Source of the DNA: Actinoallomurus purpureus | Lineage (GTDB): Bacteria; Actinomycetota; Actinomycetes; Streptosporangiales; Streptosporangiaceae | Assembly: GCF_024055795.1 (NCBI RefSeq) | Contig: NZ_JAMXMY010000022.1 | Coordinates: forward strand, 62,001 to 126,000 | Length of the DNA: 64,000 bases | Reading direction: 5' to 3' | Part shown: piece by piece, positions 49,952 to 62,142 of the stretch | Layout of the letters: every line of letters begins with the position of its first letter | How positions within the stretch are numbered: position 1 is the first letter of the stretch | Position numbers and translations under genes: made by a program | Notes under the pieces: model-generated | What the model was told of the DNA's origin: nothing | Database searches by the model: none | Seen by the model: only the letters and a program-made list of their open reading frames with translations

Positions 49952-51928
49952 ATGCCGGAAGGCCGAGGGCGGCTGATCGCCGGGCAGTACCGCCTCATCG
50001 AGGAGATCGGCCGGGGCGGTTTCGCGGTGGTGTGGCGGGCCCGTGACGAACGCCTGCACCGTGACGTCGCCGCCAAACGACTGTTCCTCCCCGCGCACTT
50101 CACCGAGGAGCAACGCACCGAACAGCGCCGGCGGACCCTCCAGGAGGCGCGCTCGGCGGCCCGGCTCGACCATCACGGCGTCGTCACCGTTCACGACGTG
50201 GTGGAGGACGGCGACGATCCGTGGATCATCATGGAGTACGTCGATGGGCGGTCGCTGGGCGAGCTGGTACGCACGCACGGCCCGCTCCCTCCGGAGCGCG
50301 TGGCCGACATCGGCCTGCAGTTACTCGACGCCCTCCGCGCCGCGCACCGGGCGGGGGTGCTGCACCGCGACGTCAAGCCCGGCAACGTCCTCATCGCCGG
50401 TCGGCGCGTGGTGCTCGGGGACTTCGGGCTCGCGACCGTCGAGGGCGATCCGGGCCTCACTCGGTCCGACGTGGTCATGGGCGCCCCCGCCTACCTGGCC
50501 CCCGAGCGTGCCCGTGGCGAGCCCGCCGTCGCGGCCTCCGACCTGTGGTCGCTCGGCGCCACGATGTTCTACGCCGTCGAGGGCCGGCGGCCCTTCCCCG
50601 GGGCGAACCCGAACGCGATGCTGCACGCGATCCTGACCGGCGAGCCGGCGCCCGCAGCGCACGCCGGACCGCTCCGGCCCGTCCTGGACGGCCTGCTCCG
50701 CAAGAACCTCACCGAGCGCATCGGCGCCGCCACGGCCGCCGAGCTCCTCTCCGCCGTCGCCGACCCGGCACGACCCTCCGGGGGGCGCCTCGAGGGCTCG
50801 GACCCGCGCCGTGCCGTTCCCCGTCCGGCCGCAGCGGACGGGAAAGAGCGCGGCGGGACGCGGCCGTGGAACGCGTTCGCCGAGACGACCCGGCCGGGCC
50901 GCGCCACACCCGGCGCACGGCCCTGGCACGGGCGCCACCTCACCGTGCTGCTCGCCACTCCGGTGGTGGCCCTCGCGCTGGCCCTGGTGACCATCCCGGA
51001 CCACACGGACGACGTCGCGCGGCGGCCGCAGCGGCCGTCCCGTCCGGCGAGCACCGCTCCGCGCCTCGTCGCCGCCCTGTCCGCCGGCCCGGGCGAGATC
51101 TACACCGTGGCCTTCAGCCCGGACGGGCGCACCCTCGCCACCGGAGGTGCGGACCACACCGTGCGCCTCTGGAACCTCACCGACCGGCGGCTGACGGCGA
51201 CCCTCAACGGCCACGCGTACGACGTGTTCTCGGCGGCGTTCAGCCCGGACGGCCGGACCCTCGCCACCGCGGGATACGACGGCAAGGTGCTGCTGTGGAG
51301 CGGCGACGGGCGGACACGGCTCGCGACCCTGGACACGCGCGGCAACAGCGTCGGCGCCCTGAGCTTCAGCCCCGACGGCGGCATCCTCGCGAGCGCCGGC
51401 GACGCCGTACGCCTGTGGAGCGTCTCCGGCCGCCGCCTCGCCGACACGCTCCCCGTCCGTGGCGAGAGTATGTTCACCGCCGCGTTCGCGCCACGCGGCA
51501 GCACCCTGGCCACCGCCGGCACCTGGGCGATCCGGCTGTGGGACACCGCCCGTCCCGGCCGGCCGGTCACCGTGACCCGGCTCACCTCGCTGATCGTCGG
51601 CATGGCGTTCAGCCCGGACGGCCGGACCCTCGCGGCGGGCGGTTACGACGGACACGTCCGCCTGTGGGACGTCGCCACCCACCGGCTCGTGGCGTCCCTG
51701 CCCGGCCTGCCCGGCCGTGTCAACGGCGTGACGTTCAGCCCGGACGGCCGGACCCTCGCCTGTGCCGGGGGTGACACCGTGCTGCTGTGGAACACCGTGA
51801 CGCGAAGACCCGCCGCCACCCTCACGACGCGGACGGGCGTCGTCGACACCGTCGCGTTCGCCCCCGACGGGAAGATGCTCGCGACGGGCGGTGACGACGC
51901 GACCGTACGCCTCTGGCGCGTCGCCTGA
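49952..51928 (+). CDS. Membrane Ser/Thr protein kinase with seven WD40 repeats (PkwA-like)
   Basis: A 658-residue protein. Kinase domain 10-265: glycine loop IGRGGFAVVW, K42, catalytic HRDVKPGN (D140) and DFGLA (157-161). A linker and one membrane helix (about 332-352) lead to seven WD40 units (about 365-658) such as VAFSPDGRTLATGGADHTVR and AFAPDGKMLATGGDDATVRL, enough for one closed propeller, presumably outside. PkwA of Thermomonospora curvata has this architecture. TATCGT at 49940-49945 ends six bases before the ATG and there is no ribosome site, suggesting a leaderless mRNA. Upstream in-frame extension is not family-like. Confidence 0.9.
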   Translation: MPEGRGRLIAGQYRLIEEIGRGGFAVVWRARDERLHRDVAAKRLFLPAHFTEEQRTEQRRRTLQEARSAARLDHHGVVTVHDVVEDGDDPWIIMEYVDGRSLGELVRTHGPLPPERVADIGLQLLDALRAAHRAGVLHRDVKPGNVLIAGRRVVLGDFGLATVEGDPGLTRSDVVMGAPAYLAPERARGEPAVAASDLWSLGATMFYAVEGRRPFPGANPNAMLHAILTGEPAPAAHAGPLRPVLDGLLRKNLTERIGAATAAELLSAVADPARPSGGRLEGSDPRRAVPRPAAADGKERGGTRPWNAFAETTRPGRATPGARPWHGRHLTVLLATPVVALALALVTIPDHTDDVARRPQRPSRPASTAPRLVAALSAGPGEIYTVAFSPDGRTLATGGADHTVRLWNLTDRRLTATLNGHAYDVFSAAFSPDGRTLATAGYDGKVLLWSGDGRTRLATLDTRGNSVGALSFSPDGGILASAGDAVRLWSVSGRRLADTLPVRGESMFTAAFAPRGSTLATAGTWAIRLWDTARPGRPVTVTRLTSLIVGMAFSPDGRTLAAGGYDGHVRLWDVATHRLVASLPGLPGRVNGVTFSPDGRTLACAGGDTVLLWNTVTRRPAATLTTRTGVVDTVAFAPDGKMLATGGDDATVRLWRVA

Positions 51929-51967
51929 ACGTGCCGCCGCCCAGAGCCCCCCCGCTCCGACAGGTCG

Positions 51968-51996
51968 TTGACATCAGGTGACGCCGGTTTTTAAGC
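51968..51996 (+). promoter_or_regulatory. Candidate promoter of the IclR gene
   Basis: TTGACA (51968-51973), a 17-base spacer and TTAAGC (51991-51996) resemble a housekeeping promoter about 38 bp upstream of the start at 52035. Confidence 0.45.
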
Positions 51997-52034
51997 TGTC
52001 CGGCATTTCGTACGGCGTTCGGAAGGTGGCTGTG

Positions 52035-52829
52035 ATGGGGCGTGCGGTGCCCGCGGTGACTCGCGCCCTCGACATCCTCGAGCTCTTCCTCGACCGCCCC
52101 TCCCTCTCGGCGCCGGAGATCACCGAGCGCCTCGGGCTCCCGCGTACGACGGTCCACGAGCTGGTCACCACGCTCACCGAACGGGCCTACCTCATCCCGA
52201 TGTCCGGCCAGCCGACGCGCTACCGCCTGGGCATGCGGCTGTTCCAGCTCGGCAGCGTCTTCGCCGATCAGCTCGACCTCGCCCACGAGGCACGGGAGGC
52301 CGCCCAGCGGGTCGCCGCCGATTGCGACGAGACGGTCCACGTGGCGATCCTCGACGGCACCCACGTCGTCTACATCGCCAAGGTGGACAGCACCCACCCC
52401 GTCCGGATGGTCTCCGCCGTGGGACGCCGCCTGCCGGCGCACTGCACCGGTGTCGGCAAGATGCTGCTATCCGGCCTGACGCCCCGGGCCCTCGACGCCG
52501 CGTACCCGCTCGACGGCGAGCCGACCGGGATGACGGACCGTAGCATCACCTCGCCCGTCCGGCTCCGGGACCACCTGGAGGAGGTCCGGCGCGCGGGCCT
52601 GTCGTACGACGAGTGCGAGTCGAACGACGCGGTGTTCTGCGTCGCCGCCCCCGTCTACGACCACACGGGCGAGATGGTCGCCGGGATGAGCATCTCGGCG
52701 CCGAGCATCCGCTGGGACGCGCGGCGCCGTGAGGAGTGGAGCGCCCTGATCCGCCGGGGCGCGGCAGCGCTCTCCCAGCGGCTCGGCCACCGTCCTCCCC
52801 CGAGCCCGGAGTCCACCCCGGCGCCCTGA
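52035..52829 (+). CDS. IclR-family regulator
   Basis: A 264-residue regulator. N-terminal winged helix (about 5-65): AVTRALDILELFLDRPSLSA and LGLPRTTVHELVTTLTERAY. Effector domain (about 80-250) with HVAILDGTHVVYIAKVDSTH, GRRLPAHCTGVGKMLLSGL and the late CVAAPVYDHTGEMVAGMSIS, all family signatures. ATG 52035 lies eight bases after GGAAGG. Its target is not evident: the next gene carries a LacI operator, so this protein may act elsewhere. Confidence 0.9.
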   Translation: MGRAVPAVTRALDILELFLDRPSLSAPEITERLGLPRTTVHELVTTLTERAYLIPMSGQPTRYRLGMRLFQLGSVFADQLDLAHEAREAAQRVAADCDETVHVAILDGTHVVYIAKVDSTHPVRMVSAVGRRLPAHCTGVGKMLLSGLTPRALDAAYPLDGEPTGMTDRSITSPVRLRDHLEEVRRAGLSYDECESNDAVFCVAAPVYDHTGEMVAGMSISAPSIRWDARRREEWSALIRRGAAALSQRLGHRPPPSPESTPAP

Positions 52830-52945
52830 CGGACCGGGGCCGGGCGGCCGACCCGCCGACGGCAGGACCGTCGGCGCCCCGCCCCATCGCGAGTCCTCCG
52901 GCTCGCCGTATCTTGACGGTATTCGGATGAGCTGCCAACATGCCG

Positions 52946-52961
52946 ATGTTTACGTAAACAT
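52946..52961. promoter_or_regulatory. LacI operator upstream of the GH42 gene
   Basis: ATGTTTACGTAAACAT, a perfect 16-bp palindrome 52 bp upstream of the GTG start at 53013. The same motif occurs twice in the 58.4-58.5 kb region between the importer operon and its LacI regulator. Confidence 0.8.
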
Positions 52962-53012
52962 TCCCTTCTCCGCCGGTCGTGAGGCGACCGGCCCCGGTGC
53001 GAGGAGTGACAC

Positions 53013-55049
53013 GTGGTCAACGACCCATCGCCCCGGTGGTTGCGGTCGCCCGTCGACGGCGCCCGTCCCGGGCTGGCGTTCGGCGCCGACTACAACCCCG
53101 AGCAGTGGCCTCGGGAGGTCTGGCGGGAGGACGTGCGGGCGATGAACGCCGCCGGCGTCACCGTCGTCGCGTTGGCGATCTTCTCGTGGGCCCGCATCCA
53201 GCCCGCCGAGGACGAGTGGAACTTCGCCTGGCTCGACGAGGTCATGGACCTGCTGCACGAGCACGGCATCGCCGTGAACCTGGCCACCGCCACGGCCTCA
53301 CCCCCGCCGTGGCTGACCACCGCGCGCCCCGACATCCTCCCGGTCGACCAGGAGGGGCGCACCCGGTGGCCGGGGGCGCGGCAGCACTGGCGGCCGACGT
53401 CCCCGGTCTTCCGCGAGCACGCGCTCGTTCTCGTACGGGCGATGGCGGAACGGTACAAGGATCACCCGGCCCTGGCCGCCTGGCACGTGTCGAACGAACT
53501 GGGCTGCCACAACATCTACGACTACTCCGACGACGCGGCGCGAGCCTTCCGCGCGTGGCTGCGGCGGCGGTACGGCACGCTCGACGCGCTGAACGCCGCC
53601 TGGGCGACGACGTTCTGGTCGCAGCACTACAGCGCCTGGGAGCAGATCCTCCCGCCCCGCCTGGCGGCCGCCTCCTCCTATCCGAACCCGGCCCAGCAGC
53701 TGGATTTCAAGCGGTTCTCCTCCGACGCGTTGAAGGATCACCTGCGCGCGGAACGTGACATCCTGCGCGAGCTGACGCCCGATGTCCCGGTGACGACGAA
53801 CTTCATGGTCATGGACGGCATCAGCGGCATGGACTACGCCGACTGGGCCGCCGAGGTGGACTTCGTCTCCAACGACCACTACGTGGTGCCCGGGCCGCAG
53901 GCGCAGGACGACCTGTCGTTCTCGGCCAACCTCACCGGCAACCTGGCACCGGACCGGCCCTGGTACCTGATGGAGCACTCCACCAGCGCGGTGAACTGGC
54001 AGCCGGTCAACCTCGCCAAGCCGGACGGGGCCATGGCGCGCGACTCACTGACGCACGTCGCCCACGGCGCCGACGCGGTCTGCTTCTTTCAGTGGCGGCA
54101 GTCCGCGGGCGGTGCGGAGAAGTACCACTCGGCGATGCTGCCGCACGCCGGGGAGGACAGCGCGGTGTTCCGCGCGGTCTGCGACCTGGGCGCCGCGCTG
54201 CGAGACCTGGCCCCGGTGGCGGGTGCGCCGCGCAAGCCGGCGCGCGCGGCGATCCTGTTCGACTGGCAGTCCTGGTGGACCGCCGAGCTGGACTCCCATC
54301 CGTCGTCGCTGCTGCGCTACCGCCAGGAGGCGCTGGACTGGTACTCGGCGTTCCTGGCCGAAGGCGTACGGGCCGACGTCGTTCCGGCCGGACACGCGCT
54401 CGACGGCTACGACCTGGTGGTGGCCCCGATCCTCCATGTGGTGCCCGAGGCCCTGGCGCGGCGGCTGCGCGCGTACGTGAACGGCGGCGGGCATCTCGTC
54501 ACCACGTACTTCTCCGGGATCGTGGACGAGAACGACCGGGTGTGGCTGGGCGGCTACCCGGGTGCGCTGCGCGACCTGCTGGGCATCCGGATCGAGGAGT
54601 TCGGGCCGTTGCCGGCCGACCAGACCGTGGAGCTCGAGGGCGGCTCCGTCGGCACACTGTGGACCGACCGGATCGACCTCACCGACCCCGCCGTCCAGGT
54701 GCTGGCCACGTACAAGTCCGGCGAGCAGGCGGGCCGGCCGGCGATCACACTCCGGCGTACGGCCGCGGGCTCGGCGGCGTACGTGTCGACCAGGCTCGGG
54801 CCCGAGGGGCTGCGGCCGGTGCTCGCCGGCCTGTTGGAGATCGGCGGCCTGCGCAGCGAACTTCCCGCGCGGTTCCGAGGGCGTGTCGAACTGGCGGTGC
54901 GCGCCACCGACGACGCGGAGTTCTGGTTCCTGATCAACCGGACCGCAGACGCCGTCGACCTCGGAGGCGTCGACGGACAGGTGCTGTACGGCGGTGACGA
55001 CCAAGTGCTCGGACCCCGCGGGGTCCGCATCCTGCGCCGTCCCCGATGA
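53013..55049 (+). CDS. GH42 beta-galactosidase
   Basis: A 678-residue intracellular enzyme with no signal peptide. N-terminal GADYNPEQWPREVWREDV and IFSWARIQPAEDEWNFAWLD are GH42 signatures. The acid/base Glu is in WHVSNELGCHN near residue 160 and the nucleophile Glu in YLMEHSTSAVNWQ near 322. Trimerisation and C-terminal beta domains follow. Expected substrates are imported beta-galactosides or arabinosides. GTG 53013 follows GAGGAG. It forms a regulon with the importer at 55.1-58.4 kb by shared operators. Confidence 0.93.
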   Translation: MVNDPSPRWLRSPVDGARPGLAFGADYNPEQWPREVWREDVRAMNAAGVTVVALAIFSWARIQPAEDEWNFAWLDEVMDLLHEHGIAVNLATATASPPPWLTTARPDILPVDQEGRTRWPGARQHWRPTSPVFREHALVLVRAMAERYKDHPALAAWHVSNELGCHNIYDYSDDAARAFRAWLRRRYGTLDALNAAWATTFWSQHYSAWEQILPPRLAAASSYPNPAQQLDFKRFSSDALKDHLRAERDILRELTPDVPVTTNFMVMDGISGMDYADWAAEVDFVSNDHYVVPGPQAQDDLSFSANLTGNLAPDRPWYLMEHSTSAVNWQPVNLAKPDGAMARDSLTHVAHGADAVCFFQWRQSAGGAEKYHSAMLPHAGEDSAVFRAVCDLGAALRDLAPVAGAPRKPARAAILFDWQSWWTAELDSHPSSLLRYRQEALDWYSAFLAEGVRADVVPAGHALDGYDLVVAPILHVVPEALARRLRAYVNGGGHLVTTYFSGIVDENDRVWLGGYPGALRDLLGIRIEEFGPLPADQTVELEGGSVGTLWTDRIDLTDPAVQVLATYKSGEQAGRPAITLRRTAAGSAAYVSTRLGPEGLRPVLAGLLEIGGLRSELPARFRGRVELAVRATDDAEFWFLINRTADAVDLGGVDGQVLYGGDDQVLGPRGVRILRRPR

Positions 55050-55054
55050 CCGAT

Positions 55055-55091
55055 GGCCCCGTATCCGCCGGCGCTCGGCGGATACGGGGCC
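55055..55091. terminator. Bidirectional terminator between GH42 and the importer operon
   Basis: GGCCCCGTATCCGCC (55055-55069) and GGCGGATACGGGGCC (55077-55091) form a perfect 15-bp stem with a 7-base loop, placed between two convergent stop codons. Confidence 0.85.
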
Positions 55092-55120
55092 ACCGGGTCA
55101 CGTCCGGCCGACCGGCCGGG

Positions 55121-56476
55121 TCACTTGATCGTGAAGCCCTGCTGCTGCCCGTACTTGATCGACCCCTCCTGCCACGCCTTCAGGCCGTCCTGGAGCGTCG
55201 TGCCGCTGATGTAGGCCTTGCCGACGGTGTCGTTGAAGGTGCTGTTGGCGTAGACCTGGAAGGGCAGGTACGACCAACCCGGGGCGACGTTCTTCGCGGA
55301 CTGCGCCAGGACCTCGTTGATCTTCTGTCCGCCGAAGTAGGCCGGTGCGGCGCCCAGGAAGTCCGGCGACTGCAGGGTGGCGGTGGTGGCGGGGAAGGCT
55401 CCGCCGTCCACCCGCAGCTTCACCCCGTCGTCGATGTCGGCGAACTTCAGGAAGCCGTAGGCCAGCTTCTTCTGCTGGCTGGCGGCGGTGACGGCCAGCG
55501 AGCTGCCGCCGTTCTCGGCGGTGGCCGTTCCGCCGGCCTGCCACTGGGGCATGGGGGCGACCCGCCACTTGCCCTTGCCGGCCTTCACCCCGGTCTCGAG
55601 GTTGGCCGGCATCCAGGCCCCGATGGTCAGGCTGGCGATGGTGCCGTCGCCGAGGCCCTTGAACCAGGCGTCGCTCCACGACTCGAACGGCGCGACCAGT
55701 TTCTTGCTGATGAGCTGCTGCCAGGCCGTGGTGAACTTCTGCGTTCCCGCGTCGCCGAAGTTGATGGCGACCTTGGTGCCGTCGACCTGGTAGGGCTTGC
55801 CGCCGGCCTGCCAGATCATGCTGGTCGTGAACCCGGCGTCCCCGACGTCGTTGGTGATGTACTTCTTGGGATCGGCCGCGTGCAGCTTCTCCGCCGCCTG
55901 GATGTACTCGTCCCAGGTGGTGGGCACGTTGATCTTGTACTTGTCGAAGACCTCTTTGTTGTAGAACAGCGCCATCGGGCCGGAGTCCATCGGCAGGCCG
56001 TAGATTCCCTTGCCCTCGTGCACCGAGTTCCACGGGCCTGGAGAGAACGTCCCGGTCAGTTTGTCGGCGCCGTAGCCGGTCAGGTCCGCCAGGGACTTGC
56101 CGAGCGCGAACTGCGGCAGCGCGAAGTACTCGATCTGCGCGACGTCCGGGATGCCGGACCCGGCGCTGATGGCGTTCTGCAGGGCGGTGTACTGGTCCTT
56201 GCTCGAACCGGCGTTGACCAGCTTGACCTTCACCTTCGGGTACTTGCTCTCGAACGCGGGGACGACCTGCTTGAGCGTCGGCTCCCACGCCCACACCGTG
56301 ATGGAGCCGCCGGCGTTCAGCGCGGCCTGCACGTCGGCGTCGGAGACGGATGCGGACTTGCCGGACGTATCGGACTTGGAACCGCCTCCGGAGGAGCCGC
56401 AGCCTGACGCGCCGAGCGCAAGACTGGCGGCCATCGCGATTCCGGACAGGAGCAGACGGCGGCGACCGAATGTCAT
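55121..56476 (-). CDS. Sugar ABC transporter substrate-binding lipoprotein
   Basis: A 451-residue extracellular solute-binding protein (family 1). The lipobox is GASGC near residue 26. The mature part has ITVWAWEPTLKQVVPAFESK, IPDVAQIEYFALPQFA, GIYGLPMDSGPMALFYNKEV and GTTLQDGLKAWQEGSIKYGQ. It would bind an oligosaccharide. ATG 56476 follows AAAGGA. It is the last gene of the importer operon (58379 to 55121). Its substrate is suggested by co-regulation with the GH42 enzyme. Confidence 0.92.
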   Translation of the reverse strand: MTFGRRRLLLSGIAMAASLALGASGCGSSGGGSKSDTSGKSASVSDADVQAALNAGGSITVWAWEPTLKQVVPAFESKYPKVKVKLVNAGSSKDQYTALQNAISAGSGIPDVAQIEYFALPQFALGKSLADLTGYGADKLTGTFSPGPWNSVHEGKGIYGLPMDSGPMALFYNKEVFDKYKINVPTTWDEYIQAAEKLHAADPKKYITNDVGDAGFTTSMIWQAGGKPYQVDGTKVAINFGDAGTQKFTTAWQQLISKKLVAPFESWSDAWFKGLGDGTIASLTIGAWMPANLETGVKAGKGKWRVAPMPQWQAGGTATAENGGSSLAVTAASQQKKLAYGFLKFADIDDGVKLRVDGGAFPATTATLQSPDFLGAAPAYFGGQKINEVLAQSAKNVAPGWSYLPFQVYANSTFNDTVGKAYISGTTLQDGLKAWQEGSIKYGQQQGFTIK

Positions 56477-56519
56477 GAAGGACGTCCTTTCAACGAGGGC
56501 GATGAGGAGAGGCGGTCGG

Positions 56520-57464
56520 TCAGCCCTTGACGCTTCCCGCCGCAAGACCGGACTGCCAATACCGCTGGAGAAGCAGGAACGCGGCGATCAGCGGCAAGAT
56601 CATGAGCAGCGAACCCGTGATGACCAGGTTGAAGACGGCCGCCGCGCCCGCGGTGTGGGCCTGCGCGTTCCACCTGTCCAGGCCGAGGGTGAGCGGATAC
56701 CAGTCGGGGTTCTTGAGCATGATCAGCGGCAGGAAGTAGTTGTTCCAGGTCGCGACCACGGTGAAGAGCAGGACGGTGACGATCCCCGGGCCCAGCAGCG
56801 GCAGGGCCACGGAGAAGAACGTACGGAACTCGCCGGCGCCGTCCACCCGCGCCGACTCCAGCAGTTCGCGCGGGATCGCCTCGGTGGCGAACGTCCACAT
56901 CAGGTAGAGGCCGAACGGCGAGACCAGCGACGGGATGATGATCGCCCACGGCGTGTCGGTCAGGCCCAGCCTGGCGAACATCAGGAAGGTCGGTACCGCC
57001 AGCGCGGTGGTGGGCACGGCGACTGCGCCGAGCACGACGACGAACACCAGGCGCTTGCCCGGGAAGGCGAACTTGGCCAGACCGTACCCGCCCAGCGTGG
57101 CCAGGACGGTCGCGCCTCCGGCGCCGACCACCACGTACAGCAGGGTGTTGAGCAGCCACCGGCCGAAGATCCCTCCGTCGTAGGTGAAGGTCTGCCGGAT
57201 GTTGCTCCACAGCGCGAAGTCGCCGGAGAACCACAGGCCGAACGAGTGGAACAGGCCCTCCTGGCTCTTCGTCGCGTTGATCACCAGCCACAGGAGCGGG
57301 ACCAGGCTGTAGAGCAGCACGATCGAGGTCATCGCGGTGAGCAGGGGACTGCGTCTGCGGCGGGGCGACGCCTGCCGCCGGACGATCAGCGGCCGTCGTC
57401 CGGGCCGGTCGGGCCGGGACCGGGTTCGCGGGGCCGTCGGTGTCGTGGTTCCGGTGGTGGCCAT
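56520..57464 (-). CDS. Sugar ABC transporter permease (MalG type)
   Basis: A 314-residue permease with a basic N-terminal tail of about 40 residues and six membrane helices. The EAA loop, which contacts the ATPase, is ELLESARVDGAGEFRTFFSV, followed by ALPLLGPGIVTVLLFTVV. It starts three bases after the MalF-type gene ends, so the two are coupled, and it precedes the binding-protein gene. Confidence 0.92.
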   Translation of the reverse strand: MATTGTTTPTAPRTRSRPDRPGRRPLIVRRQASPRRRRSPLLTAMTSIVLLYSLVPLLWLVINATKSQEGLFHSFGLWFSGDFALWSNIRQTFTYDGGIFGRWLLNTLLYVVVGAGGATVLATLGGYGLAKFAFPGKRLVFVVVLGAVAVPTTALAVPTFLMFARLGLTDTPWAIIIPSLVSPFGLYLMWTFATEAIPRELLESARVDGAGEFRTFFSVALPLLGPGIVTVLLFTVVATWNNYFLPLIMLKNPDWYPLTLGLDRWNAQAHTAGAAAVFNLVITGSLLMILPLIAAFLLLQRYWQSGLAAGSVKG

Positions 57465-57467
57465 CGG

Positions 57468-58379
57468 TCAGACCGCCTTCCGTGCGCCGCGCACCTGCAC
57501 GAGGTAGGCGATGACCATGGTGATCACGCCCATCACGATGGCCACGGTCGCCGAGTAGTTCTGCTGCTGCCCCGAGAACGACAGCTGATAGGCGTAGTAG
57601 TTGGGGGTGTAATACGTCGTGATCACGTTCAGCGCCAGGTGCTTGAGGATCGCCGGCTCGGTGAACAGCTGGAAGCTGCCGATGATCGAGAAGATCGTGG
57701 CGATGAGCAGCGCGCCCCGCAGTGCCGGGATCTTGATGGCCCACACGATCCGCAGCTGTCCCGCCCCGTCGATCTCGGCCGCCTCATAGAGCGAGGTCGG
57801 TATGACCTTGAGTGCCGAGTAGAAGATCAGCATGTTGTAGCCCGCGAACTCCCAGGTGACGATGTTGCCGATCGACGCCAGGAGCAGCCGGGCGGACAGC
57901 GGATCCGGCAGGGAGAGGCCGAAGGCGTCGTTGATGTCGCCGATCAGCCCGAACTGGGAGCCGTACATGAAGCCCCACATCAGCGTGGCGACCACGGCGG
58001 GCACGGCGTAGGGCAGGAACACCGACACCCGGAAGAACGCCTTGCCGTACAGGCGTCCGCTGTCGATGGCCAGGGCGACCAGCAGGGCGATGCACAACAT
58101 GATCGGCACCTGCACGGCCAGGAACAGCGCCACCCGGCCGAAGCTGGACCAGAACTGCGGATCCGACAGCGCGGTCCGGTAGTTGTCGACCCCGACGAAC
58201 GAGGTTCCCCCGATCAGCTTCGTCTGGAAGAGGCTCAGGTAGATCGAGTAGCCGATCGGGGCGAGAAAGACCAGGGTGAACACGGCCATGAAAGGCCCGA
58301 CGAACTGCCATCCGCGCCAGGAGCGACGGCCGGCGGATCGTCGGACCTGGGGCGTCGCCACCGCTTGCGCTTCCGCCAT
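57468..58379 (-). CDS. Sugar ABC transporter permease (MalF type)
   Basis: A 303-residue permease with six membrane helices, beginning with a short basic tail then FVGPFMAVFTLVFLAPIGYS. The EAA loop is SLYEAAEIDGAGQLRIVWAI with KIPALRGALLIATI. First gene of the operon, 37 bp downstream of a LacI operator. No ATPase gene is in the unit; actinomycetes often share one MsiK-like ATPase among such importers (family knowledge). Confidence 0.92.
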   Translation of the reverse strand: MAEAQAVATPQVRRSAGRRSWRGWQFVGPFMAVFTLVFLAPIGYSIYLSLFQTKLIGGTSFVGVDNYRTALSDPQFWSSFGRVALFLAVQVPIMLCIALLVALAIDSGRLYGKAFFRVSVFLPYAVPAVVATLMWGFMYGSQFGLIGDINDAFGLSLPDPLSARLLLASIGNIVTWEFAGYNMLIFYSALKVIPTSLYEAAEIDGAGQLRIVWAIKIPALRGALLIATIFSIIGSFQLFTEPAILKHLALNVITTYYTPNYYAYQLSFSGQQQNYSATVAIVMGVITMVIAYLVQVRGARKAV

Positions 58380-58416
58380 GGTGAACCTCCTGCGCCAGGT
58401 AACCCGCGACCGTGAA

Positions 58417-58432
58417 ATGTTTGCGTTAACAT
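58417..58432. promoter_or_regulatory. LacI operator before the importer operon
   Basis: ATGTTTGCGTTAACAT, 14 of 16 positions matching the palindrome ATGTTTACGTAAACAT, located 37 bp upstream of the permease start at 58379. Confidence 0.7.
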
Positions 58433-58493
58433 TCGTGGCCGCCCGCAGCGCCGGCGGCGGACGGTGAAAGTGAGGGATGACGACGTAATAGCG

Positions 58494-58509
58494 ATGTTTA
58501 CGTAAACTT
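58494..58509. promoter_or_regulatory. LacI operator before the regulator gene
   Basis: ATGTTTACGTAAACTT, 15 of 16 positions of the palindrome. It lies 62 bp from the previous operator, centre to centre 77 bp, which would allow looping between the divergent promoters. Confidence 0.75.
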
Positions 58510-58625
58510 CATCGCGGTATCGTGGCACCCGTCCCAGCGGTCGTCAAGGGTCCGAGAGGCCACCCCCGGGCTCCCGCACCCTGGCTTCGGCGGTGCCTGA
58601 AGCGGTCCGGAAGGAGCGGCCGACG

Positions 58626-59714
58626 ATGACTTCGTCGAATCCCGGCGACGGCGAGACCCGGCAGGACGATCCTCCGGTGTCCGTCGGCGGACGGCGCAAG
58701 CAGCGCGTGTCCATGGCCGACGTGGCGCGGCTCGCGGGCGTCTCCTCCCAGACGGTCTCCCGGGTCGCCAACGGCCATCCGAGCGTGGTCGGGGCGACAC
58801 GGGACCAGGTCCTGGCGGCCATGCGCACGCTGGGCTACCGGCCCAACAGCGCGGCGCGGGCGCTGCGGTACGGCGAGTTCCGCACGATCGGCGTGATCCT
58901 GTTCAGCCTCAGCTCGACCGGCAACTCGAGGACCCTGGAGGCCATCGCCGCGCACGCGGCCGCGGAAGGGTACGCGATCACGTTGATCCCGGTCGCGGCC
59001 CGGACCCAGGACCACGTCATGGGAGCCTTCACCCGGATGGGCGAGCTCGCCGTCGACGCGGTGATCGTCATCATGGAGGCGCACCTGCTCGACAGCGTGT
59101 CGTTCACCCTCCCACCGGGCGTCCACGTCGTCATGGTCGACTCCGACGCCGGCGACAGGTACCGCGTGGTCGACACCGACCAGGCCGACGGCGCCCGCCA
59201 GGCGGTCGAGCACCTGCTGGATCTCGGGCACCGGACGGTATGGCACGTCGCCGGCCCGGCGGAGTCGTTCGCCGGCGAGCGCCGTGCGGCGGCCTGGCGG
59301 AAGGCCCTGGAGGACGCCGGACGGGCAGTGCCTCCCGTACGGCGCGGCGACTGGTCAGCAGAGTCGGGGTACCGGATCGGGCTGGAGCTCGCCGAGGAAC
59401 CGGCGTGCACCGCGGTGTTCGCCGCCAACGACCAGATGGCCCTCGGTCTGCTGCACGCCTTCGGCGAGAAGGGCAGACGCGTGCCCGCCGACGTCAGCGT
59501 GGTGGGCTTCGACGACGTCCCCGGCACCGCCGCCTGGTTCGTCCCGCCGCTGACCACGGTGCACCAGGACTTCGCCGAGGTCGGCCGCCGCTGCGTCCAG
59601 GGCGTCCTCGACCAGATCCGCGGCGCCCACCACTCGACCCCCGGCACCACTCTGGTCCCCACCCGCCTGGTCGTCCGCCAGAGCACAGCGCCGCCTCCCG
59701 CAGACCGCGCATGA
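58626..59714 (+). CDS. LacI-family regulator of the GH42/importer regulon
   Basis: A 362-residue regulator. After a Gly/Asp-rich tail of about 28 residues comes the LacI helix-turn-helix VSMADVARLAGVSSQTVSRV and hinge RPNSAARALR. The effector domain carries VILFSLSSTGNSRTLEAIAA and VFAANDQMALGLLHAF, with DFAEVGRRCVQGVLDQI near the end. ATG 58626 lies about 11 bases after GGAAGGAG. Three matching palindromes nearby make autoregulation and control of the importer and beta-galactosidase likely. Confidence 0.9.
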   Translation: MTSSNPGDGETRQDDPPVSVGGRRKQRVSMADVARLAGVSSQTVSRVANGHPSVVGATRDQVLAAMRTLGYRPNSAARALRYGEFRTIGVILFSLSSTGNSRTLEAIAAHAAAEGYAITLIPVAARTQDHVMGAFTRMGELAVDAVIVIMEAHLLDSVSFTLPPGVHVVMVDSDAGDRYRVVDTDQADGARQAVEHLLDLGHRTVWHVAGPAESFAGERRAAAWRKALEDAGRAVPPVRRGDWSAESGYRIGLELAEEPACTAVFAANDQMALGLLHAFGEKGRRVPADVSVVGFDDVPGTAAWFVPPLTTVHQDFAEVGRRCVQGVLDQIRGAHHSTPGTTLVPTRLVVRQSTAPPPADRA

Positions 59715-59752
59715 CGCACCGGACCTACCGGGCAGGGGGCGTTCTGCCGGCG

Positions 59753-60919
59753 TCACGCGTGGCGAAGGACGTGATCCGGGGAGTCGAGCCATACCGCCTG
59801 ATCGCCGTCCGCACCGACCGTCAACCCGAACCGGGTGAGCGCCGGACGACCCGCGCCATCCCACCAGCGGCAGGCCGCTTCCACCTCATCCCACAGGCGC
59901 CGCGGACCGTGTTGCGACACCTCGAAGACGTCCGTGCCGGGCACGTAGTCCGCTGCCGCCCACGACCCAGAGGCGCTGTCGAGCAGCCAAAGCGTGAACT
60001 CCTCCGAAGCCGGATCAGACCGGCCGATGTACTGCCGGGCATTCACCAGCAGCCCGATCGCGAATTCCGCGTCCTCCTCGAACGCCGCGACACGGGGACT
60101 GAGTTTGGTGGCCGAGTCTTCCGCCTGGTCCTCGTCGTGCACGTCCCGGTGAACATCCACGGGAGCGAGGCGCTGCGCCCGCAATGTCATGAATGCCGCC
60201 GGTCCCACCAGCGGGCCGCTCGCCGTCCCATCGGGAGAGACGGTGAGGCGCGCCAGCGCGCCGCCCTCCGCGTAGGTCGTGTGCCACGGGACGACGATGA
60301 CCCCACCGGGCCGGGTCTGCGCCACCCAGCTGTACGGCACGTCCCTCACGGAACAGGTTGCGATCACCCTGTCGAACGGCGCCGCGCCCGGGTAGCCGTC
60401 TGCACCATCCCCGGTGATCACCTGTGGGAAGAACCCGGCAGCCGCCAGATTCGCCAGCCCGTCCGCCGCCAACCCGGCATCTATCTCGACGGTCGTGACA
60501 TTCCCGTCACCGACACGGCAGCACAGCAGCGCCGCGTTGTAGCCGGTCGCCGTACCGACCTCCAACACCCGCATCCCGTCACCCACGTCCAGATGGTGGA
60601 GCATCCCGAACACCATCGACGGCATGCTCGCCGAACTCGTCAGCACATCCCCCGTACCGTCCGGGCCTGCCGGGGCCCCGTCATCGACCTGGGTGACGAG
60701 GAAATGGTCGGAGTAGCAGGCGTCCAGCCACAAGTCCGGGTCGTCGCTGCGGGACACCGGGACGTAGTAGCCGTCGCCGCGGTCGGTCCAGATCGTCTCC
60801 GGGATGAACAGGTGCCGCGGAACGGCGTCATGGCAGCGGGCCCACGCCGGATCCTGTAGGGCGCCGACGGCGGCAAGGTGGTCCCGTAGCCGCCGCTGCG
60901 CCTGCCGATAGTCGGTCAC
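59753..60919 (-). CDS. Protein L-isoaspartyl O-methyltransferase homologue, probable RiPP modifying enzyme
   Basis: A 388-residue SAM-dependent methyltransferase. The PIMT-like domain (about 1-215) has RCHDAVPRHLFIPETIW, the substrate loop DVLTSSASMPSMVFGMLHHL, motif I RVLEVGTATGYNAALL (117-132) and VTTVEIDAGLA. About 170 extra C-terminal residues (VAAFEEDAEFAIGLLVNARQ, FTLWLLDSASGSWAAADYVP) are absent from housekeeping PIMT (about 210) but typical of RiPP-associated homologues. GTG 60919 overlaps the stop of the 45-residue peptide gene (GTGA), so the peptide is the likely substrate: Asp methylation and aspartimide formation, as in imiditides. That role is inference. Confidence 0.85.
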   Translation of the reverse strand: MTDYRQAQRRLRDHLAAVGALQDPAWARCHDAVPRHLFIPETIWTDRGDGYYVPVSRSDDPDLWLDACYSDHFLVTQVDDGAPAGPDGTGDVLTSSASMPSMVFGMLHHLDVGDGMRVLEVGTATGYNAALLCCRVGDGNVTTVEIDAGLAADGLANLAAAGFFPQVITGDGADGYPGAAPFDRVIATCSVRDVPYSWVAQTRPGGVIVVPWHTTYAEGGALARLTVSPDGTASGPLVGPAAFMTLRAQRLAPVDVHRDVHDEDQAEDSATKLSPRVAAFEEDAEFAIGLLVNARQYIGRSDPASEEFTLWLLDSASGSWAAADYVPGTDVFEVSQHGPRRLWDEVEAACRWWDGAGRPALTRFGLTVGADGDQAVWLDSPDHVLRHA

Positions 60920-61053
60920 TTCTTCGGCTTCGGGTTGTTCCACTTCGGCGCCTTGATGCCTTGGTCGCCGCCGTGCTTGGTGGGTTTGTCGCCGTCGCCG
61001 CTCGACGGGGTTTTCTTGCCGTCGCTGTTGCCCTTGTCGCGTTTGGTACTCAC
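60916..61053 (-). CDS. 45-residue Lys/Asp-rich peptide, candidate RiPP precursor
   Basis: GTG 61053 (GGAGG four bases upstream) opens a 45-codon gene: STKRDKGNSDGKKTPSSGDG, then DKPTKHGGDQGI and KAPKWNNPKPKK. It has eleven Lys and five Asp (D6, D11, D20, D22, D30), no Cys and little hydrophobic content. It overlaps the methyltransferase start by four bases. Imiditide clusters known from Nonomuraea consist of a small precursor plus a PIMT homologue, the same layout. No cleavage site or protease gene is visible. It could instead be an unrelated small basic protein. Confidence 0.65.
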   Translation of the reverse strand: MSTKRDKGNSDGKKTPSSGDGDKPTKHGGDQGIKAPKWNNPKPKK

Positions 61054-61070
61054 ATCGCCTCCGCCCCTGA

Positions 61071-61967
61071 CGAGACGTCACCGGAACGGTACGCCTGAGC
61101 GGAGATCGCCAGTCGGATCTGCGGAAACACGCCCGGTTCCGGACGGCCGGAAGCAAGATCAACGCCAAGTGGGGCACGGACACGATCGCCCCCGGCCTGC
61201 AGCGCAACCAGATGTGCGTCATCGACATCAGCGACCAGCACTACCAGCCCATCCCGAGCGAGGGCCACCACTGGACGACGGGCAAGATGCTGTCGCTCGG
61301 ACGGGGCGGCCTCCTGGGCGGCAACGCCAGCGATGTCGCCAAAGAGGCTCTCATCAAAGGCGCCCAGCACAGCTTGAAGATCTGCCAGCAGGACCTCGCG
61401 TTCACCGGTTTCACCGCCGAGAAAGACCACAAGGTCTGTCACTGGATCGCCGAGGCCCTCCTCCAGAATCAGCTCCTCAAGGTCGACATCGTCGTCTCCC
61501 CGATCGGCGGCGCGACCCACGGCGCCCAGTACTCCTGGGGCTTCGGTGCCTCCGGCACCTACGCCCTCATCAAAAGCATCATCGAGGACAAGCTCCCCAA
61601 GCTTCGCGACGAGGCCGCTTTCCAGCGTGTCCTCGCCCGCCTCCAGGTAGCCCCGTTCTGCTTCACCCAGGTGCAGTTCACCAAGGAGGGCGAGGACTAC
61701 CTCTGGCCCACCCCGCCGGACACGGCCGTCATCGGCCGCTTCGAGAAGGGCTCCAAGATCCCGTCAGGGAAGTACAACCCGGCCCCCGGCAACCACGCCA
61801 AGGTCTACATCGTCGACGACGCCTGCTTCTACATCGGCAGCGACAACCTGTACCCCCACGACCTCGCCGAGTTCGGCTACCTCATCGAGGGCCCCGCCGT
61901 GGCCGACATCCTGGCTCGCTACTGGACCTCGGTCTGGCAGTACAGCTCCCCGCACAAAATCACCTAG
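61071..61967 (+). pseudogene. 5'-truncated phospholipase D-like protein
   Basis: The frame is open from 61071 and encodes RKHARFRTAGSKINAKWGTD, then CVIDISDQHYQPIPSEGHHW, up to one HKD motif, HAKVYIVDDACFYIGSDNLY, near the C-terminus. PLD enzymes need two HKD motifs; the first half is missing. No ATG, GTG or TTG precedes ATG 61212 in frame, yet the sequence before it looks coding, and 61212 lacks a ribosome site. This is best read as the 3' part of a larger gene cut by a rearrangement next to the peptide/methyltransferase pair. A 251-residue product from 61212 cannot be excluded. Confidence 0.65.
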
Positions 61968-62012
61968 ACAGGGCAACCAGCCCGGTCCCCCCACCCGAGC
62001 CAAAACGCAACA

Positions 62013-62041: not shown

Positions 62042-62068
62042 ATTCCGATGTCCTGAGACATCACAGAG

Positions 62069-62142
62069 TCGGGACGGCGGGATTTGAACCCACGATCTTC
62101 TGACCCCCAGTCAGACGCCCTACCAAGCTAGGCCACGTCCCG
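62069..62142 (-). tRNA. tRNA-Pro (anticodon GGG)
   Basis: A complete cloverleaf can be drawn. The acceptor stem is CGGGACG with CGTCCCG and discriminator A; the anticodon arm is TCTGA-CTGGGGG-TCAGA, giving GGG for codon CCC; the T arm is GTGGG-TTCAAAT-CCCGC. CCA is not encoded. A C1-G72 pair is typical of bacterial tRNA-Pro. Confidence 0.95.

What the first reader, a model, noticed from the sequence alone, without database searches (positions are those of the whole stretch)
59753..61053. Minimal peptide plus PIMT-homologue pair: candidate imiditide-like RiPP cluster
Seen: a 45-residue Lys/Asp-rich peptide gene with its own GGAGG site ends in a 4-bp GTGA overlap with a 388-residue PIMT homologue that has a 170-residue C-terminal extension. 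Known: imiditides (described from Nonomuraea maritima) need only a precursor and such a methyltransferase, which turns an Asp into an aspartimide; related PIMTs act on lanthipeptides, lasso peptides and graspetides. Inference: this is a stand-alone member, with D11-G, D20-G or D30 as possible sites. No other RiPP enzyme is nearby.
Basis: partly seen in the sequence, partly recalled or inferred. Interest (0 to 1): 0.8.

Follow-up and report, generated by a model that had tools for sequence, protein, structure and literature searches.

The report
Divergent imiditide (type I pamtide) pair
A short lysine-rich peptide gene and the methyltransferase gene that overlaps it form a two-gene pathway of an already described kind, in which the enzyme probably turns one aspartate of the peptide into a ring that can reopen as iso-aspartate; this one is a divergent, unusually charged member.

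Summary
A 45-aa, GTG-started peptide (60916-61053, minus strand) ends in a GTGA overlap with a 388-aa PIMT homologue (59753-60919) that has a ~174-aa C-terminal domain. The interpretation also holds: it is a two-gene imiditide (type I pamtide) cluster, a class published in 2023. A small charged ORF with a ribosome-site-like sequence ends at the start of homologous enzymes in 58 of 73 and 51 of 80 loci, against 0 of 73 and 3 of 80 at the enzyme stop. The enzyme has the WxxxGxP motif and an acidic loop, and its predicted fold best matches full-length T. maritima PIMT. Own-genome searches with one lanthipeptide, one graspetide and one asparagine-synthase (lasso) family found nothing on this contig. 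I predict Asp20 as the modified residue, because related precursors often carry Asp seven residues before His-Gly; Asp11 is the main alternative and Asp30 has little support. The pair is a lone branch (best relative 55% identity), and its peptide has the highest net charge (+7) of 119. The chemistry is untested here and the biological role is unknown. New member of a known kind.

The parts
60916..61053 (-). Precursor peptide gene, 45 aa, net charge +7, no cysteine
   Evidence: Translation; composition; class-wide pairing with the methyltransferase
61058..61062 (-). GGAGG ribosome-binding-site-like sequence, four bases before the GTG start
   Evidence: Sequence
60994..60996 (-). Codon of Asp20, predicted site of modification (D20-G-D-K-P-T-K-H27-G)
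   Evidence: Asp seven residues before His-Gly in 9 of 16 non-redundant stretches of relatives; DGxxPxxHG in 6 of 65 precursors, window included
61021..61023 (-). Codon of Asp11, alternative site (NSDGKKTP)
   Evidence: Resembles the N-terminal DG[HKRQ] found within residues 8-18 of 35 of 119 precursors
59753..60919 (-). PIMT-like O-methyltransferase (PAMT), 388 aa; GTGA overlap with the peptide gene
   Evidence: PF01135 E 8e-23; TIGR04188 360 bits, below its cut-off of 380; model pLDDT 94.2
60542..60562 (-). SAM-binding motif E120-VGTAT-G126
   Evidence: E120, G122, T123 and G126 are invariant in 28 rows; naming it the SAM motif is recalled knowledge of PIMTs
59756..60277 (-). C-terminal domain, residues 215-388
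   Evidence: Outside PF01135; best full-length structural match 1DL5 also has a C-terminal extension
60116..60157 (-). Acidic stretch DVHRDVHDEDQAED, residues 255-268, roughly where NmaM is reported to carry its DEDGD loop
   Evidence: Third in a sorted list of 146 relatives for acidic excess, ties not resolved; NmaM loop from review passages; not aligned to NmaM
59843..59863 (-). WxxxGxP motif, W353-DGAGRP
   Evidence: motif in 130 of 146 distinct relatives

Best explanation
A stand-alone imiditide (type I pamtide) pair. The two genes are translated together across the GTGA overlap. The strongly cationic linear precursor docks on the acidic methyltransferase, which uses SAM to methylate one aspartate side chain, most likely Asp20. 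The methyl ester then closes without the enzyme to an aspartimide, helped by the small neighbour Gly21, and the aspartimide opens to iso-aspartate or aspartate. Shown here: the gene pair, domains, motifs, predicted fold, pairing across the class, and absence of three RiPP maturase families from the contig. Inferred from the characterised NmaA/NmaM and SpaA/SpaM pairs: docking by charge, methylation and ring formation. The choice of Asp20 (about 0.6; Asp11 about 0.25) is a prediction. Later processing, export and activity are unknown.
For: Pairing with a small charged ORF in 58 of 73 and 51 of 80 homologous loci against near zero at controls. Full-length best PDB match 1DL5, the enzyme the pamtide paper names as structural relative. 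WxxxGxP, reported for imiditide enzymes. Acidic stretch in the C-terminal domain. No TIGR04187, PF04738 or PF00733 match on contig C14. In 51 related loci no flanking gene family was shared by more than 6. Precursor fits the published type I description of ~45 aa, rich in Gly, Pro and Asp and of Lys.
Against: No chemistry was observed. No close orthologue exists to fix the Asp by conservation: at most 55% identity for the enzyme, and a lone, weakly placed branch. The precursor lacks the usual M-G-K/R-H start. Across 119 pairs precursor charge does not track acidity of the loop (rho -0.04). The enzyme was not compared with NmaM or SpaM, whose sequences I did not have.
Confidence: 0.9

Rival explanations
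1. Same pathway, but the modified residue is Asp11 (NSDGKKTP) rather than Asp20.
For: DG[HKRQ] within residues 8-18 occurs in 35 of 119 precursors; in a few of these (for example L067 and L072) it holds the only Asp-Gly.
Against: Asp seven residues before His-Gly is over-represented (9 of 16, shuffle mean 2.25), and the window has exactly this at D20-H27. The shuffle ignores relatedness.
Confidence: 0.25
2. The methyltransferase tailors a cyclic RiPP (graspetide, lanthipeptide or lasso peptide) and the 45-aa peptide is incidental.
For: The best NCBIfam name is 'ATP-grasp peptide maturase system methyltransferase'.
Against: Below that model's cut-off (360 of 380 bits), and all 28 aligned relatives match the same model. 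The genome's own enzyme beside an ATP-grasp gene, L006, is a different protein that passes the cut-off at 428.6 bits. None of the three maturase families tested is on C14.
Confidence: 0.03
3. A housekeeping protein-repair PIMT beside a chance ORF.
For: PF01135 and distant matches to repair PIMTs.
Against: Extra C-terminal domain, scores far below the repair-PIMT cut-offs, and class-wide pairing with controls.
Confidence: 0.02
4. A decayed, no longer working pair.
For: Lone branch and unusual peptide start; broken pairs exist elsewhere (L007 in the own genome; L016 and L068 in relatives).
Against: Both frames are open, overlap and ribosome-site-like sequence are intact, conserved residues are kept, and the predicted fold is confident.
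Confidence: 0.05

Closest known systems
Imiditides / type I pamtides (NmaA/NmaM, Nonomuraea maritima; SpaA/SpaM, Streptomyces sparsogenes)
   Same: Two genes, ~45-aa linear charged precursor without cysteines, PIMT homologue with C-terminal domain, WxxxGxP and an acidic stretch
   Different: Lone branch; highest net charge of 119 precursors; no M-G-K/R-H start. Sequence comparison with NmaA/SpaA themselves was not possible
Cysimiditides / type II pamtides
   Same: Two-gene layout, same enzyme family
   Different: Those precursors carry two CxxCxGxG motifs; this one has no cysteine. The own genome has such a pair at L005
Graspetide, FxLD-lanthipeptide and lasso methyltransferases
   Same: Same enzyme family and C-terminal domain
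   Different: They act on cyclised peptides beside another maturase; TIGR04188 and TIGR04364 score below their cut-offs here, and no such maturase family was found on the contig
Thermotoga maritima PIMT (1DL5)
   Same: Best full-length structural match, with a C-terminal extension
   Different: 21% identity in the structural alignment, TM-score 0.53-0.54 by query length

Membership tests
Imiditide / type I pamtide | Two-gene cluster: precursor plus PIMT homologue, no other RiPP maturase | tested here: met
   Overlapping pair; TIGR04187, PF04738, PF00733 absent from C14. Other maturase families were not searched
Imiditide / type I pamtide | Precursor of about 45 aa, rich in Gly, Pro, Asp and Lys, without the tetracysteine motif | tested here: met
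   45 aa; G 15.6, P 11.1, D 11.1, K 24.4%; no Cys; published values
Imiditide / type I pamtide | PIMT homologue with extra C-terminal domain and WxxxGxP | tested here: met
Imiditide / type I pamtide | Conserved Asp near conserved Pro or Gly | tested here: inconclusive
   No orthologous precursor; D20 fits a spacing rule shared across clades, D11 fits another motif
Imiditide / type I pamtide | Precursor-enzyme recognition by charge | tested here: inconclusive
   Peptide +7, loop -6, but no correlation with the loop over 119 pairs (rho -0.04); a weak trend with whole-enzyme charge (rho -0.27) is not corrected for relatedness
Imiditide / type I pamtide | Aspartimide (or isoAsp) formed on the precursor | not testable with these tools
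   Needs co-expression and mass spectrometry
Type II pamtide (cysimiditide) | Two CxxCxGxG motifs | tested here: not met
   No cysteine
Graspetide methyltransferase system | ATP-grasp maturase in the cluster; TIGR04188 above cut-off | tested here: not met
   TIGR04187 only on C10; 360.1 bits against 380
FxLD lanthipeptide methyltransferase | LanB in the cluster; TIGR04364 above cut-off | tested here: not met
   PF04738 only on C22 and C52; 125.5 bits against 320

The most novel reading that the evidence does not exclude
The pair founds a distinct, highly cationic imiditide subtype: a lysine-rich C-terminal tail (IKAPKWNNPKPKK) and a strongly acidic enzyme replace the usual M-G-K/R-H start and tail, so recognition may be more electrostatic than in described members and the product may be a membrane-active peptide carrying an electrophilic ring.
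Probability: 0.2. Interest if true: 0.4.

Novelty: new member of a known kind. Interest (0 to 1): 0.3.

Why it matters
Imiditides need only one precursor and one enzyme, and the 2026 review (passages seen) says linking aspartimide peptides to a biological function is the open challenge. This locus is a divergent member with a testable site prediction, and the spacing seen here (Asp seven residues before His-Gly, or often eight before His-Glu) could help to predict sites in uncharacterised precursors. It does not change what is known about the class.

Tried and rejected
Repair PIMT with a chance upstream ORF: rejected by class-wide pairing and controls. Graspetide, lanthipeptide or lasso tailoring: the three families tested are not on the contig; other maturase families were not searched. 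Type II pamtide: no cysteine. Close orthologue to fix the Asp: none above 55% identity for the enzyme among 198 relatives (matches at E <= 1e-80) or 341 family genomes (E <= 1e-105); peptide search of 198 genomes gave only itself and weak matches in 18 others. Charge co-variation between precursor and loop: none (rho -0.04, 119 pairs); whole-enzyme charge shows a weak trend (rho -0.27, p 0.003) not corrected for relatedness, and the strongest of many sliding windows (rho -0.47 at residues 88-101) is not corrected for multiple testing. Conserved third gene: none shared by more than 6 of 51 loci, with ORFs picked by length and GC3 only. One search read minus-strand loci the wrong way round and was redone; its peptides for those loci were discarded. 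The peptide picker found no candidate in 11 of 77 loci and 16 of 80; some picks (L008, L109) look wrong to me. Rows dropped: L001, L005, L007, L008 before the control; methyltransferases under 330 aa and duplicates before the set of 146 with 119 peptides. The imiditide discovery paper is not held; what I say of NmaA/NmaM comes from passages of the review. Supplementary files could not be opened, so I cannot say whether this pair is among the published type I clusters.

Full report
What is there. On the minus strand a 45-codon GTG-started ORF (60916-61053), with GGAGG four bases upstream, ends in a GTGA overlap with a 388-codon GTG-started ORF (59753-60919). The peptide is MSTKRDKGNSDGKKTPSSGDGDKPTKHGGDQGIKAPKWNNPKPKK: 11 Lys, 7 Gly, 5 Asp, 5 Pro, no Cys, GC3 0.89. 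The larger protein matches PF01135 at residues 96-214 (E 8e-23) and TIGR04188 at residues 11-374 (360.1 bits, below its cut-off of 380). TIGR04188 matches all 28 aligned relatives, so its name does not make this a graspetide enzyme.

The pairing is real. A 26-75-aa ORF, at least half K/D/G/P/N/E/H/Q, with a ribosome-site-like sequence and ending at the enzyme start (from 12 bases before to 16 after) is present in 58 of 73 and 51 of 80 loci. The same test gives 0 of 73 and 3 of 80 at the enzyme stop and 0 at four fixed offsets and on the opposite strand. The two sets share organisms. The picker found nothing in 11 of 77 loci. Of these, L006 lies beside an ATP-grasp gene; L092, L094 and L096 follow frames that look ATP-grasp-like, and L093 a frame that looks like another methyltransferase, by eye; L016 and L068 show a peptide-like reading that is broken; L007 is shortened; L004, L034 and L083 are unexplained. 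Another 16 of 80 named loci gave nothing, and I did not follow these up.

The enzyme fits the class. Forty columns are invariant in 28 relatives. W353-DGAGRP matches WxxxGxP, found in 67 of 77 loci and 130 of 146 distinct relatives. [quoted passage not shown] The window enzyme has DVHRDVHDEDQAED at 255-268, third of 146 in acidic excess; I could not align it to NmaM. The AF2 model has mean pLDDT 94.2. Its best PDB match is 1DL5, T. maritima PIMT with a C-terminal extension, over about 380 columns (TM-score 0.53-0.54 by query length), the structural relative named in PMC10787088 (outline, parts 1 and 2 of 3 of section 5, and section 10 read).

Other RiPP machinery. In the own genome TIGR04187 matches only C10, PF04738 only C22 and C52, and PF00733 only C6, C22, C3, C33 and C12. 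The window lies on C14. Near neighbours are two ABC permeases, a LacI-type regulator, a phospholipase-D-like ORF (weak, below the Pfam cut-off), a tRNA-Pro and a GFO/IDH/MocA oxidoreductase. In 51 related loci no flanking gene family was shared by more than 6.

Which aspartate. Precursors of different clades carry different motifs. Before thinning, 74 internal His-Gly or His-Glu sites have Asp seven residues before in 33 and eight before in 40. Among 16 non-redundant His-Gly stretches, the window left out, Asp is seven before in 9; shuffling residues gives a mean of 2.25 (P 0.0001 at this offset, 0.0007 at any offset). The offset was noticed before it was tested, and the shuffle ignores relatedness. 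In the window peptide that position is D20, in D20-G-D-K-P-T-K-H27-G; DGxxPxxHG occurs in five other precursors of 65. D11 resembles the N-terminal DG[HKRQ] of 35 of 119 precursors and stays possible. D30 follows the His-Gly and has no such support.

How it differs from its kin. No relative of the enzyme exceeds 55% identity in 198 relatives or 341 family genomes, and it is a lone, weakly placed branch in a FastTree tree of 146. The precursor ranks first of 119 in net charge (+7) and second in Lys content. The tempting idea that precursor charge tracks loop acidity is not borne out (rho -0.04 over 119 pairs).

Verdict. A new, divergent member of a published class. PMC10787088 reports over 1,500 two-gene pamtide clusters; the review passages give 1,414, by my reading the type I number, and 125 type II. 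Whether this pair is on that list I could not check. The reaction is inferred from NmaM and SpaM and not shown here. In the library searched, papers holding 'imiditide' numbered 5 and papers holding 'pamtide' 2.

Noticed in passing
Own genome G000: L001, L002, L003, L005, L006 (C10), L008 (C22): One genome seems to hold four kinds of aspartate-methylating RiPP systems: three type I pairs (L001-L003), one type II-like pair with a cysteine-motif peptide (L005), one enzyme beside an ATP-grasp gene (L006, TIGR04188 428.6 bits) and one FxLD lanthipeptide enzyme (L008, TIGR04364 471.3 bits) about 3.4 kb from a LanB match.
   Followed up: partly
L007 (G000:C1:246659-247345): A shortened methyltransferase with an in-frame stop, preceded by the first residues of an M-G-R-H type peptide: looks like a decayed pair.
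   Followed up: no
window 62068-62142 and 59753-61967; L197, L198: The pair lies on the variable side of a tRNA-Pro(GGG). In two congeners that keep this tRNA and the oxidoreductase, no similarity to window 50000-62000 was found in the ~7 and ~8 kb fetched beyond the tRNA, apart from one short match elsewhere, so the pair may be a local insertion.
   Followed up: partly
window 61212-61967 (+): A 251-aa phospholipase-D-like ORF (PF00614 19.7 bits, below cut-off) with relatives of 58-59% identity in two congeners; its coding frame seems to continue upstream of the first ATG, so it may lack its 5' end (by eye only).
   Followed up: no
Precursors in L001-L037 and L061-L180: Asp tends to lie seven residues before His-Gly and eight before His-Glu (5 of 10 non-redundant His-Glu stretches) in type I precursors; I did not see this spacing in the passages of the two papers that I read.
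   Followed up: partly
plasmid collection: Relatives of the enzyme occur on 134 actinomycete-dominated plasmid records of 72,556, 114 of them Streptomyces, all below 60% identity.
   Followed up: no
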